NCBI GenBank assembly: GCA_021798875.1
Contig: JAJZBN010000006.1
Location: forward strand, 1-64,000
DNA: 64,000 nucleotides
From: a bacterium
GTDB taxonomy: Bacteria; SZUA-79; Acidulodesulfobacterales; Acidulodesulfobacteraceae
Direction: 5' to 3'
Below are positions 1 to 3,377 of this stretch, piece after piece. Each line of letters begins with the position of its first letter. The first letter of the stretch is position 1. The translations under genes and the position numbers were made by a program. The notes beneath the pieces were generated by a model. The model worked only from the letters and a program-made list of their open reading frames with translations, made no database searches and was not told where the DNA came from.

Positions 1-57
1 CTCCTGGTATAATGTTCACTATAAGTATCGTGAACATATTTGTTAATTTGATTAATT

Positions 58-85
58 TTGTTAAAATATTGTTAATTTGTAATAT
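58..85 (+). promoter_or_regulatory. Candidate promoter of the IS110 left-end RNA
   Basis: TTGTTA at 58-63 and TAATAT at 80-85 are separated by 16 bases, a reasonable sigma70 layout that would start transcription near 92, just ahead of the structured region. The surroundings are very AT-rich, so chance matches are likely. Confidence 0.35.
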
Positions 86-91
86 TAAATT

Positions 92-268
92 AAATCTAAC
101 AAGCTTTATCTAAAAGCAAGAAAGACGGTTTGTTTCCTCCTTATAGTCCGATTATATCGGAACTATTTAAATGAGTTTACCGCTTCTTGCATATATAACT
201 GGGAACATTTATTTAGGGCGCTATGGAGTCTGATTCTTAAGACTACCATTCATTACCCAGGCTATGTT
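92..268 (+). ncRNA. Candidate IS110 bridge RNA
   Basis: By hand the segment folds into a small 5' hairpin followed by two consecutive stem / internal-loop / hairpin modules. The 5' hairpin is 103-107 with 113-117. In module 1 the outer stem is 116-122 with 184-190 plus 126-129 with 179-182; the internal-loop strands are 130-142 and 167-178; the apical hairpin is 143-152 with 156-166 (one bulged A). In module 2 the outer stem is 199-203 (CTGGG) with 256-260 (CCCAG); the loop strands are 204-222 and 250-255; the apical hairpin is 223-231 with 240-249 (one bulged A). This matches the target-binding and donor-binding loop plan and the ~177-nt size of the IS621 bridge RNA, in the same position upstream of the transposase. 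RNA ends are inferred. Confidence 0.6.
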
Positions 269-336
269 TGGTTATGTATCGCACGATGTTTCTTTCTTGG
301 CTTTTTAGACTTAAGCAATTAATCGGAGAAATTCTT

Positions 337-1548
337 ATGTTCTATTTAGGTATCGATGTTTCTAAATCCTCCTCCCGTTATGTTATGTTGGATAATGAAG
401 GAGAGAAACTGACTCAACCATTTTCGTTATTAAACGACAAAGACTCTTTTGCAAAGCTATTGTTAAAGATTGAAAAACTTAACATTAACGCAAAAAACAT
501 TTTAGCCGGTATAGAAGCCACCGGCATCTGGTGGGAAAATCTTTATTCTTTCCTAACCGATAACGGTTTTAAGGTTATTGTATTAAATCCCTACCAGACC
601 AACAAATTCAGAGAAGCTCTCCGTTTTAAAGCCAAGACCGACGATATCGATGCATACGTAATTGCAGGTCTTCTTAGATCCAACGAGTATGCCGAAAACT
701 TTGTTCCAGAGGACAATATCCAGTCGCTAAGAGAATTTACCAAGCTTAGATACGAGTTCATCAAAAACAAAGCCGGCTATGAACGTCAGGCTATATCGCT
801 ACTTAGCCTCATTTTTCCGGAATATGCCAAAACGGCTATCAAAAATCCGTTTGCCGTTGCATCAATGGCTATTTTAAAACAATATCCCACGGCTAAACAC
901 CTATCTTTAGCTAAGCCTAAAGATATTGAAAAAATAGTGAGATCCATAAAGGGCAACAATTTTAATATTAATGAAATAAACCATCTTATAGAGACTGCCA
1001 AAAACTCTATCTATTCCGGCAGAGCTAAGACCGCCAGGGGTTTAAATCTATCCATGATTCTTGCCCAGATTAAATCTCTTAACGATTCTATTTCTACATT
1101 AGACGATCAGATAAAAGACATACTGGATAACGATAAAAACGATAACTCGTTGAGTTATAATCTGTCCACTATACCCGGCGTCGGTCAAAAAACCATTGCC
1201 GCAGTTTTATCGGCAATAGGTTCTGACGCTAAAACGTTCAGTTCGTCTAAGAAATTTATAGGCTATATCGGTTTTTTCCCTCAAATATACGAATCAGGTG
1301 AAACCAGACGGGATAACCTGATATCAAACCGCGGACCTAAATATTTAAGATGGGCTTTTTATATATCAGCCGTTGCCTGTTTGCGGCACAATAACGAACT
1401 TAGAACCGTTTATTATAAAAAGTTGTCTCAAGGCAAATCTTCTAAACAGGCTTTAATTTGCGTTGCCAAGAAATTAGCCCTTATTATGTTTTCTATAATT
1501 AAGTCAGGCAAACCTTATGATCCTAACAGGGTTTTCGTTTGCTCTTAA
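337..1548 (+). CDS. IS110-family DEDD transposase (bridge-RNA-guided type)
   Basis: This is a 403-aa recombinase of the IS110 family, which recombines a circular donor into target DNA under guidance of a bridge RNA. The N-terminal RuvC-like domain shows LGIDVS (D7), GIEATG (E60) and AKTDDIDA (D102, D105), the same E60/D102/D105 spacing as IS621. The C-terminal Tnp domain shows IPGVGQKT near 279-286 and an ESG at 319-321 whose Ser320 fits the catalytic serine, followed by NRGPKYLRWA. I chose the ATG at 337 because GGAGA at 325-329 is well placed; the frame is open back to 268 but those codons lie in the structured left end. The gene looks intact, so the element could be active. Confidence 0.93.
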   Translation: MFYLGIDVSKSSSRYVMLDNEGEKLTQPFSLLNDKDSFAKLLLKIEKLNINAKNILAGIEATGIWWENLYSFLTDNGFKVIVLNPYQTNKFREALRFKAKTDDIDAYVIAGLLRSNEYAENFVPEDNIQSLREFTKLRYEFIKNKAGYERQAISLLSLIFPEYAKTAIKNPFAVASMAILKQYPTAKHLSLAKPKDIEKIVRSIKGNNFNINEINHLIETAKNSIYSGRAKTARGLNLSMILAQIKSLNDSISTLDDQIKDILDNDKNDNSLSYNLSTIPGVGQKTIAAVLSAIGSDAKTFSSSKKFIGYIGFFPQIYESGETRRDNLISNRGPKYLRWAFYISAVACLRHNNELRTVYYKKLSQGKSSKQALICVAKKLALIMFSIIKSGKPYDPNRVFVCS

Positions 1549-1550
1549 AT

Positions 1551-1911
1551 TTTCAAAGAACGAAGTTTTTATTATCAAAACAAAGTAGAAATGTCCGTTT
1601 TTGTTTAAAATTAATATACTGCCTATGGCGGACGAAAACCCGAAACAATACTCTTTGAGCGTAAGCGAAAAGAGTATTGTGAAGGGGTTTAATTTTCGTC
1701 CGCCATCTGCGAATATTAACTGCGGGCAAATTTTATTATGAAATAGGCATTTTTTATTATTTTAGTTAAAATATTTAAAAAAATGCCGCATAATACGCAA
1801 AATAAGGCGTTGAAATTACGGGCTAAGTAGTTTATCATTACCCATTTACTGACATATTGTCTATGTTAGCGCTCAAAAATATGCGCTAAAGATTTCAATT
1901 TCAAAGAACGA
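1551..1911. repeat. 13-bp direct repeat bracketing a 335-bp segment
   Basis: TTTCAAAGAACGA occurs at 1551-1563, just after the transposase stop, and again at 1899-1911. Between the copies lie the long hairpin (1625-1706) and a 7-bp inverted repeat (1866-1872 with 1883-1889). I see no convincing coding sequence in between. The layout could reflect an inserted unit or the scar of recombination between element ends. Confidence 0.4.
1625..1706. repeat. Long two-tier hairpin, unknown function
   Basis: Perfect 14-bp arms (1625-1638 with 1693-1706) enclose a perfect 12-bp inner stem (1645-1656 with 1669-1680) with a 12-nt loop. CCC 1639-1641 can also pair within GGGG 1684-1687. In total 26 or more base pairs are packed in 82 nt. 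There is no T-run on either side, so it is not a simple intrinsic terminator. It could be a structured RNA, a single-strand-folded recombination site, or a palindromic MITE remnant. Repeat copies elsewhere in the window were not found. Confidence 0.6.
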
Positions 1912-1978
1912 TATTGAACCGATTTTAAATTTTAAACATTTTGCTATTATATTTTTTTTAAATATTTTTCTTGACTCT

Positions 1979-2107
1979 TTATAGGACGACTTTTAAAATT
2001 TTAGACACCGTTTTTGAATGCACGTTAAGCCTTTTTGCTATTGCGCTTAACGAAAGGCCTATATCGAAATAAGCCTTAATTTGATAATACTTGTCTTTCG
2101 TTACCAT
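1979..2107 (-). pseudogene. IstA-like HTH fragment (42 codons)
   Basis: A 42-codon ORF starts with ATG at 2107 behind a strong Shine-Dalgarno (GGAGGG on the minus strand, plus positions 2113-2118) and ends with TAA at 1979-1981. It reads MVTKDKYYQIKAYFDIGLSL then SAIAKRLNVHSKTVSKILK, a helix-turn-helix resembling the N-terminus of IS21-family IstA transposases. IstA proteins are several hundred residues long, so this is most likely a transposase remnant. A stand-alone small DNA-binding protein cannot be excluded because start and ribosome site look intact. Confidence 0.5.
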
Positions 2108-2506: not shown

Positions 2507-2716
2507 TTATATGGTTAGATATTCTGCATAAGAAACAGGTTCTGGAATATTTATTCCGTCCTCCATTAGACCGTCAATATGCATTCTAATAGCTTCAACC
2601 ATATTTTTTTTTGTTTCTTCCTTAGTTTTTCCTGTGGAAATAACTCCCGGAAGATCTGGTGAATAACAAGAATAATTATTGCCCGCTTTTTCAATCACTA
2701 TAAGCATTTTTTGCAT
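2507..2716 (-). CDS. hicB: HicB-family antitoxin
   Basis: This is a 69-aa protein with the partial-RNase-H fold signature of HicB antitoxins: an early IEKAGNNYSCYSPDLPGV strand-turn followed by STGKTKEETKKNMVEAIRMH. HicB neutralises the HicA ribonuclease and usually represses the operon. The protein is at the short end for HicB and I see no separate C-terminal DNA-binding domain after the RNase-H-like fold, so autoregulation is uncertain. It follows hicA by 4 bases, and its ribosome site (GAGGA) lies inside the hicA 3' end, implying coupled translation. Confidence 0.88.
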   Translation of the reverse strand: MQKMLIVIEKAGNNYSCYSPDLPGVISTGKTKEETKKNMVEAIRMHIDGLMEDGINIPEPVSYAEYLTI

Positions 2717-2720
2717 ATTT

Positions 2721-2915
2721 TTATCTGTCCTCTTTTAATTTTGCCTGTTTTAAAATACTGTTTAACGTACCAGCCGCTATATCGTCGTTAGGGTGTCCCG
2801 CAATAGTTACTCTGCCTGTTTTATTAGAATGCTTATACTGCCTATGGCTGCCTTTTATTGCAATAAGAACCCAACCGTCTTTTTCTAATATTTTTATTAT
2901 ATCACGAATTTTCAT
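2721..2915 (-). CDS. hicA: HicA-family mRNA interferase toxin
   Basis: This 64-aa protein has the HicA double-stranded-RNA-binding-like fold: MKIRDIIKILEKDGW, then KGSHRQYKH with the active-site His24, then VTIAGHPNDDIAAGTLNSIL. HicA cleaves mRNA and tmRNA and arrests growth until HicB binds it. Length and motif order are typical and the gene looks intact. It is first in the hicA-hicB operon, in an accessory strip where repeat copies separate the modules. Confidence 0.92.
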   Translation of the reverse strand: MKIRDIIKILEKDGWVLIAIKGSHRQYKHSNKTGRVTIAGHPNDDIAAGTLNSILKQAKLKEDR

Positions 2916-3140: not shown

Positions 3141-3377
3141 TCAAAATAATGCCGGTATCGAAATATCCTCATCTATTTCTTCCCAATGGATACCTATTCC
3201 CCTGCCTATTAAACGCCATTTATTCCTCTGTTCCTCATTCGCATTGCGAAGTTTGGGAAACCAATCTATGGGGATGCTTAATTCTCTGCCGTCTAATAAA
3301 CTGATATGCATCATATAGGAATCAAATCTTATGTTAGAAGCCAGAGCTTCATGTGATTTAACTGCTAAAGTATTCAT
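3141..3377 (-). CDS. DUF2442 domain protein (putative antitoxin-like partner)
   Basis: This 78-aa protein matches the DUF2442 pattern: a variable start, then LLDGRELSIPIDWFPKLRNA, WRLIGRGIGIHWEEIDEDISI. DUF2442 genes commonly sit directly behind DUF4160 genes and the pair has been predicted to act like a toxin-antitoxin module; no biochemical role is assumed here. The reading frame overlaps the upstream DUF4160 gene by 20 bases, so translation is probably coupled. A repeat-borne terminator lies just beyond the stop. Confidence 0.85.
   Translation of the reverse strand: MNTLAVKSHEALASNIRFDSYMMHISLLDGRELSIPIDWFPKLRNANEEQRNKWRLIGRGIGIHWEEIDEDISIPALF

What the first reader, a model, noticed from the sequence alone, without database searches (positions are those of the whole stretch)
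92..268. Bridge-RNA-like fold in the left end of an intact IS110 element
Two successive stem / internal-loop / hairpin modules (outer stems 116-129 with 179-190, and 199-203 with 256-260; apical hairpins 143-166 and 223-249) lie between a plausible promoter and the transposase start. This is the target-loop plus donor-loop plan of IS621-type bridge RNAs, at the right size and place, and the transposase has E60/D102/D105 and a Ser320 candidate intact. The loop strands 130-142/167-178 would be the target guide and 204-222/250-255 the donor guide. One weak hint: GAACAT..ATTT in the donor-loop strand (203-214) resembles the element's left end (32-41).
Basis: partly seen in the sequence, partly recalled or inferred. 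Interest (0 to 1): 0.82.

Follow-up and report, generated by a model that had tools for sequence, protein, structure and literature searches.

The report
Jumping gene guided to gene starts
This stretch encodes the guide RNA of an IS110-type jumping gene, and in the element's relatives the target guide is tuned to the ribosome-binding site in front of genes, so almost every relative (24 of 25 sites checked) has landed just before a gene's start codon.

Summary
Window 109-289 folds into two stem/loop/hairpin modules (z = -3.5). Across nine related elements, 27 of 49 pairs show compensatory changes (12.6 +/- 2.2 in shuffles, at most 12 when slid). Relatives and multi-copy elements fix the ends: element 6-1989, core CT at 4-5 and 1990-1991. 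The donor guides match both ends in the pattern solved for IS621 (LDG 212-220 with the RE; RDG 252-260 with CTGGTAT, six Watson-Crick pairs). Handshake guides co-vary with donor DNA. The RE-LE junction makes a TTGACT-17-TATAAT promoter. New: the target guide reads UUUCCUCCU, an anti-Shine-Dalgarno sequence, and 24 of 25 insertions of the wider clade lie in a Shine-Dalgarno site, with ATG 8-11 nt beyond the core (6% for random CT, 20% for CTCCT). IS900, also IS110 family, was already known to hit translation starts. So this is a new member of a known kind, with an RNA explanation for a known targeting habit.

The parts
1..3 (+). last bases (CTC) of the left target flank; the contig starts here
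   Evidence: The window is the start of contig C4. Relatives show the boundary just after CT.
4..5 (+). left core dinucleotide CT
   Evidence: Shared boundary in relatives CT|GGTATAAT.
4..10 (+). right donor (RD) CTGGTAT of the RE-LE junction
   Evidence: Six Watson-Crick pairs with RDG 252-260 in the IS621 spacing.
8..13 (+). -10 box TATAAT of the junction promoter
   Evidence: 17 nt from TTGACT across the RE-LE junction.
6..1989 (+). complete IS110-group element (1984 bp)
   Evidence: Ends from homologues and multi-copy alignment.
109..289 (+). bridge RNA, both binding loops (true 5' and 3' ends unknown)
   Evidence: Fold z -3.48; covariation.
116..190 (+). target-binding module: outer stem 116-122/184-190 and 126-129/180-183
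   Evidence: Paired cells 60/63 and 35/36.
133..141 (+). left target guide UUUCCUCCU (anti-Shine-Dalgarno)
   Evidence: Matches the L002 insertion site 8 of 9; position by IS621 analogy, 9 nt plus 1 linker before the hairpin.
143..166 (+). target-module apical hairpin
   Evidence: 7 of 8 pairs with double changes.
168..175 (+). right target guide, ends in core guide AG
   Evidence: Inferred by alignment; 3 of 4 proximal positions (172-175) pair with the right flank CTTT, G-T counted.
176..177 (+). handshake guide UU, pairs with donor positions 6-7 (GA) after exchange
   Evidence: Covariation of HSG with donor over 8 distinct pairs.
191..279 (+). donor-binding module: outer stem 191-200/270-279 and 203-208/264-269
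212..220 (+). left donor guide UUUAGGGCG
   Evidence: Pairs 6 of 6 (G-U counted) with RE 1983-1988; permutation 18/20000 over elements.
223..249 (+). donor-module apical hairpin
   Evidence: 7 of 12 pairs with double changes.
252..260 (+). right donor guide AUUACCCAG
   Evidence: Pairs with CTGGTAT (4-10), two nucleotides skipped as in IS621.
337..1548 (+). IS110 transposase/recombinase, 403 aa, D7 E60 D102 D105 S320
   Evidence: Pfam DEDD_Tnp_IS110 5e-34 and Transposase_20 7e-21; NCBIfam IS110 RNA-guided transposase 2.5e-68; IS621 structure 8wt6 1.8e-27.
1551..1898 (+). about 348 extra bases in the right end between 13-bp direct repeats, with a hairpin at 1625-1706
   Evidence: absent from close relatives, which have roughly 55-100 bases here.
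1971..1976 (+). -35 box TTGACT of the junction promoter
1980..1989 (+). left donor (LD) TATAGGACGA, right end of the element
1990..1991 (+). right core dinucleotide CT
1992..2107 (-). right flank: a cut helix-turn-helix reading frame into which the element inserted
   Evidence: HTH_38 2.8e-6; no intact copy in the genus.

Best explanation
Window 6-1989 is an IS110-group insertion sequence whose left end encodes a bridge RNA. Excision makes a circle in which the right end abuts the left end. The junction forms a sigma-70-like promoter that transcribes the left end. The RNA's second loop reads the junction (donor) and its first loop reads the target; the DEDD/Ser recombinase then exchanges strands at a CT core. 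The target loop carries CCUCCU(U), the same letters as the 3' tail of 16S rRNA, so the element is aimed at Shine-Dalgarno sequences and lands, left end first, just upstream of start codons. Shown here by sequence: structure, covariation, ends, guide matches, insertion-site bias of the clade. Inferred: transcription, binding and recombination activity, which are known for IS621 but not tested for this element.
For: Structural covariation across nine elements. Element ends from homologues and from four multi-copy elements in Campylobacterota genomes. Donor guides match their own ends better than swapped ones: LDG 45/48 against 37.9, 18 of 20000 permutations; RDG 46/56 against 40.9, 117 of 20000. 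Handshake guides 15/16 against 7.8, 5 of 20000. RE-LE junction promoter 11/12 at 17-nt spacing. IS621 geometry from PMC11208158. Catalytic residues conserved. 24 of 25 insertions have an ATG with an open frame 8-11 nt past the core, against 6% of all CT and 20% of CTCCT. A second, truncated copy in the same genome (C79) sits in the Shine-Dalgarno of a hydrolase-like gene.
Against: No transcript or activity data. The window's own left flank is only three bases, and its right flank lies in a cut reading frame, so this copy is probably not at a true Shine-Dalgarno site; L035 also sits inside a coding sequence. The right target guide of the window copy fits its right flank only in part (3 of 4). 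Donor position 7 does not pair with the left donor guide. Guide positions were assigned by eye before testing, so the permutation values are somewhat flattering. The extra ~348 bp in the right end might affect mobility.
Confidence: 0.93

Rival explanations
1. The region is a structured leader or cis-regulator of the transposase (attenuator or translation control), not a guide RNA.
For: It lies directly upstream of the transposase and is strongly folded.
Against: Loop letters co-vary with DNA at both element ends and at the handshake positions, which a leader would not need. The structure matches the IS621 plan.
Confidence: 0.03
2. The element is a bridge-RNA element, but the Shine-Dalgarno bias is only a by-product: any CT-rich target, or survival of insertions in intergenic DNA, would put copies upstream of genes.
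For: Insertions outside coding sequence are tolerated better. In these loci CTCCT is followed by a start codon 20% of the time and CCTCCT 36%. Two copies (window, L035) lie within reading frames.
Against: 24 of 25 sites are at the usual Shine-Dalgarno to ATG spacing, p about 2e-16 against CTCCT sites. Orientation is always the same, and the guide itself spells CCUCCU in elements from several phyla.
Confidence: 0.1
3. The window copy is a decayed, immobile remnant, and its RNA is no longer used.
For: About 348 extra bases between direct repeats in the right end; a target-site mismatch at its own right flank; only one full copy assembled in the genome.
Against: Transposase intact, both ends intact, guides match its own diverged right end (GGGCG/GGACG) and its handshake letters (UU/GA) co-vary. 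The contig break exactly at the left end suggests further copies collapsed in assembly (inference).
Confidence: 0.25

Closest known systems
IS621 bridge RNA (Durrant 2024 PMC11208160; Hiraizumi 2024 PMC11208158)
   Same: Left-end RNA of about 180 nt with target then donor loop; CT core; ATA/TAT subterminal repeats; 9-nt left target guide; right donor guide with two skipped nucleotides; handshake guides; junction promoter; DEDD plus Ser recombinase.
   Different: Transposase distant in sequence and longer (403 aa; IS621 chain 328). The left donor guide does not pair at position 7. Target is Shine-Dalgarno rather than REP. No Rfam model detects it.
IS900 of Mycobacterium avium subsp. paratuberculosis (IS110 family)
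   Same: Inserts at CATGNNNNNNTCTCCTT, i.e. translation-initiation signals (PMC8141618; Doran 1997 cited there).
   Different: No guide RNA was invoked in the paper read; the IS900 RNA and transposase were not compared here.
seekRNA of ISEc21 and other IS110/IS1111 elements (PMC11187229)
   Same: Same principle: a noncoding-region RNA with two target-matching stretches.
   Different: Described as a shorter RNA with a different target (a conserved stretch of IS3-family transposase genes for ISEc21).

Membership tests
IS110-group insertion sequence with bridge RNA | DEDD (RuvC-like) plus Transposase_20 recombinase with catalytic Ser | tested here: met
   Pfam and NCBIfam; alignment to IS621, residues D7 E60 D102 D105 S320.
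IS110-group insertion sequence with bridge RNA | Long noncoding left end, CT-type core at both ends, short subterminal ATA/TAT repeat | tested here: met
   LE CTGGTATAAT, RE TATAGGACGACT; repeat definition from PMC11208160.
IS110-group insertion sequence with bridge RNA | Conserved RNA fold with two internal loops in the left end | tested here: met
   Covariation.
IS110-group insertion sequence with bridge RNA | Donor loop complementary to the RE-LE junction | tested here: met
   LDG and RDG permutation tests.
IS110-group insertion sequence with bridge RNA | Target loop complementary to the insertion site (clade-wide) | tested here: met
   Left target guides match their sites at 3-8 of 9 positions, mean about 6.
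IS110-group insertion sequence with bridge RNA | Target loop complementary to the window copy's own site | tested here: inconclusive
   Only three bases of left flank are in the contig; the right flank fits 3 of 4.
IS110-group insertion sequence with bridge RNA | Junction promoter in the circular form | tested here: met
   TTGACT-17-TATAAT by sequence; activity not tested.
IS110-group insertion sequence with bridge RNA | RNA binds the recombinase and directs recombination | not testable with these tools
   Needs an in vitro or in-cell assay.
IS1111 group | Long right end carrying the RNA, 7-17 bp subterminal repeats | tested here: not met
   RNA is in the left end; subterminal repeat only 3 bp.

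The most novel reading that the evidence does not exclude
A clade of IS110 elements in several phyla uses a bridge RNA that copies the 16S rRNA anti-Shine-Dalgarno sequence, giving an RNA-guided element a universal address (gene starts), so that it can cross phyla without changing its guide. At least one other clade (L097-L104) reaches the same address with the opposite guide strand (AAGGAG in the right target guide). The left end may also supply an outward promoter that keeps the invaded gene expressed.
Probability: 0.6. Interest if true: 0.68.

Novelty: new member of a known kind. Interest (0 to 1): 0.52.

Why it matters
It gives an RNA-level reason for an old observation, that some IS110 elements such as IS900 insert at translation-initiation signals, and shows a guide whose target is the same in nearly all bacteria. 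It adds independent evolutionary support, from distant relatives of IS621, for the donor-guide geometry and the handshake-guide idea. It also offers natural recombinases from unusual lineages whose insertion site is predictable at gene starts.

Tried and rejected
Rfam at gathering score and at E <= 5: no family matches. Viral-contig scans with the protein and with the alignment: no relative. Looking for an intact copy of the cut HTH gene to see the window's empty site: none in the genus. Short left-end-like hits in G002, G004, G008 and a 30-bp hit in C107 were AT-rich and uninformative. L012 first seemed to lack a proper left end; the real one lies further out and is also at a Shine-Dalgarno site. 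An alternative pairing of 184-190 with a 3' strand (GCAGGAA) is nearly as good in relatives but weaker in the window; which partner is used, or whether they switch, is open. L065 was left out of the site count because its left end is ambiguous, L014 because its left end is off the contig. L069 (core TT) was left out of the handshake permutation; by eye one of its two positions fits.

Full report
The window is the first 64 kb of contig C4 of a 2.5-Mb draft genome, and the IS110 element sits at the very start of that contig. The transposase starts at 337 (Pfam DEDD_Tnp_IS110 and Transposase_20; NCBIfam 'IS110 family RNA-guided transposase'). Its closest solved relatives are IS621 and ISCro4. D7, E60, D102, D105 and S320 align with the five catalytic residues of IS621 and are invariant among the relatives aligned.

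Relatives came from bacterial genome collections. There were five from genome contigs, including two Omnitrophota and one Latescibacterota at 60-70% identity, further Omnitrophota-phylum genomes, and Campylobacterota-phylum genomes, some complete and with two to four copies of one element. A left-end fragment of the same element, 95% identical over window 1-185, is on contig C79 of the window's own genome.

Structure. The window RNA 109-289 folds at -50 kcal/mol, z -3.48. Aligned with eight relatives, RNAalifold gives 49 pairs, 27 with compensatory changes on both sides. Shuffles never reach this (mean 12.6) and sliding the partner by one to three columns gives at most 12. For the donor module, the stem 204-208/264-268 has compensatory changes in three lineages, whereas 199-203/256-260 is almost invariant, as expected if 256-260 is a guide rather than a stem.

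Ends. Copies of one element at different sites in one genome (G523 four, G741 three, G491 two, G470 two) and the clade alignment fix the boundaries. In the window the core is CT at 4-5 and 1990-1991, with ATA/TAT short repeats next to the donor as reported for IS110 (PMC11208160). The RNA therefore lies inside the mobile unit. The joined ends create TTGACT-17-TATAAT, matching the junction promoter described for the family.

Donor guides. In IS621 the right donor guide spans nine nucleotides and pairs with seven donor bases, with two flipped out (PMC11208158). Window 252-260 AUUACCCAG pairs with CTGGTAT in that pattern. The relatives change together: GG/CC, CG/CG and CC/GG at the two bases after the core. 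The left donor guide (UUUAGGGCG here; UUUAGGAUG, UUUAGGAUC, UAUUAAAAG, UAUGAAACG elsewhere) tracks the right end of its own element (18 of 20000 permutations). The two bases after the right target guide track donor positions 6-7 (UU/GA, AC/GT, AG/CT, CA/TG, CC/GG, UC/GA; 15 of 16, 5 of 20000 permutations), as the handshake model predicts. Guide registers were set by eye with IS621 as a template before these tests, so the values are indicative.

Target. The left target guide is UUUCCUCCU in the window, and CC(U/C)CC(U/C) is kept in all nine aligned sequences. These are the letters of the anti-Shine-Dalgarno tail of 16S rRNA (established knowledge). Of 25 insertion sites with a readable left flank, 24 have an ATG with an open frame 8-11 nt beyond the core, always on the left-end side and reading away from the transposase. 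The same test succeeds at 6% of all CT, 20% of CTCCT and 36% of CCTCCT in the same DNA. The exception, L035, is within a reading frame. The window copy itself has only CTC on its left, and its right flank is a cut helix-turn-helix frame, so it probably used a Shine-Dalgarno-like AAAAGGAG inside a gene (inference). In a more distant clade (L097-L104) the right target guide reads AAGGAG and the right flank CTCCTT, which looks like a second way to the same address; the core position there is ambiguous within CTCCT.

Consequence. Since the core CT stays at both ends, the invaded gene keeps an AGGAG-type sequence in front of its ATG. The left end of the window, and of L037 with the same hexamers, carries an outward promoter-like TTAACA-17-TATAGT about 20 nt from the core; weaker versions are in L002, L036 and L015 (about 2-3% of shuffles do as well for the best two). 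That these insertions leave the gene expressed is a hypothesis.

Literature. The two 2024 founding papers give no hit for Shine-Dalgarno/ribosome-binding (PMC11208160) or IS900 (both) in the term searches made. IS900 has long been reported to target translation-initiation signals, with motif CATGNNNNNNTCTCCTT (PMC8141618). A search for IS110 with Shine-Dalgarno gave nothing relevant in the open library; most subscription papers and all bioRxiv preprints are not covered.

Verdict: a genuine bridge RNA of an IS110-group element by every sequence test available, a new member of a known kind. The notable part is the anti-Shine-Dalgarno guide shared by relatives in several phyla.

Noticed in passing
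window 2507-2716 and 2721-2915 (-): A HicB-like antitoxin and HicA toxin gene pair lies just right of the element.
   Followed up: partly
window 3141-3377 (-): A DUF2442 protein gene next to the HicAB pair.
   Followed up: no
window 1551-1911: About 348 bp of extra DNA in the element's right end between perfect 13-bp direct repeats, with a 14-bp perfect inverted repeat (1625-1638/1693-1706) inside; no direct copy elsewhere in the genome.
   Followed up: partly
window 12-37: The left end holds an inverted repeat ATGTTCAC-10-GTGAACAT overlapping the outward promoter-like site; could be a regulator-binding site.
   Followed up: no
L017 (G015:C78:2890-2966): A solo left-end remnant in another species of the genus, also placed in a Shine-Dalgarno sequence.
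   Followed up: partly
L015 2501-3706: A relative whose transposase has two in-frame stops and whose ends and guides have drifted: a decaying copy.
   Followed up: no
window 184-190: TTCTTGC (TTCCTGC in relatives) can pair with a 5' strand (116-122) or with a 3' strand just after the donor stem (GCAGGAA in relatives); a possible switch between the target and donor modules.
   Followed up: partly
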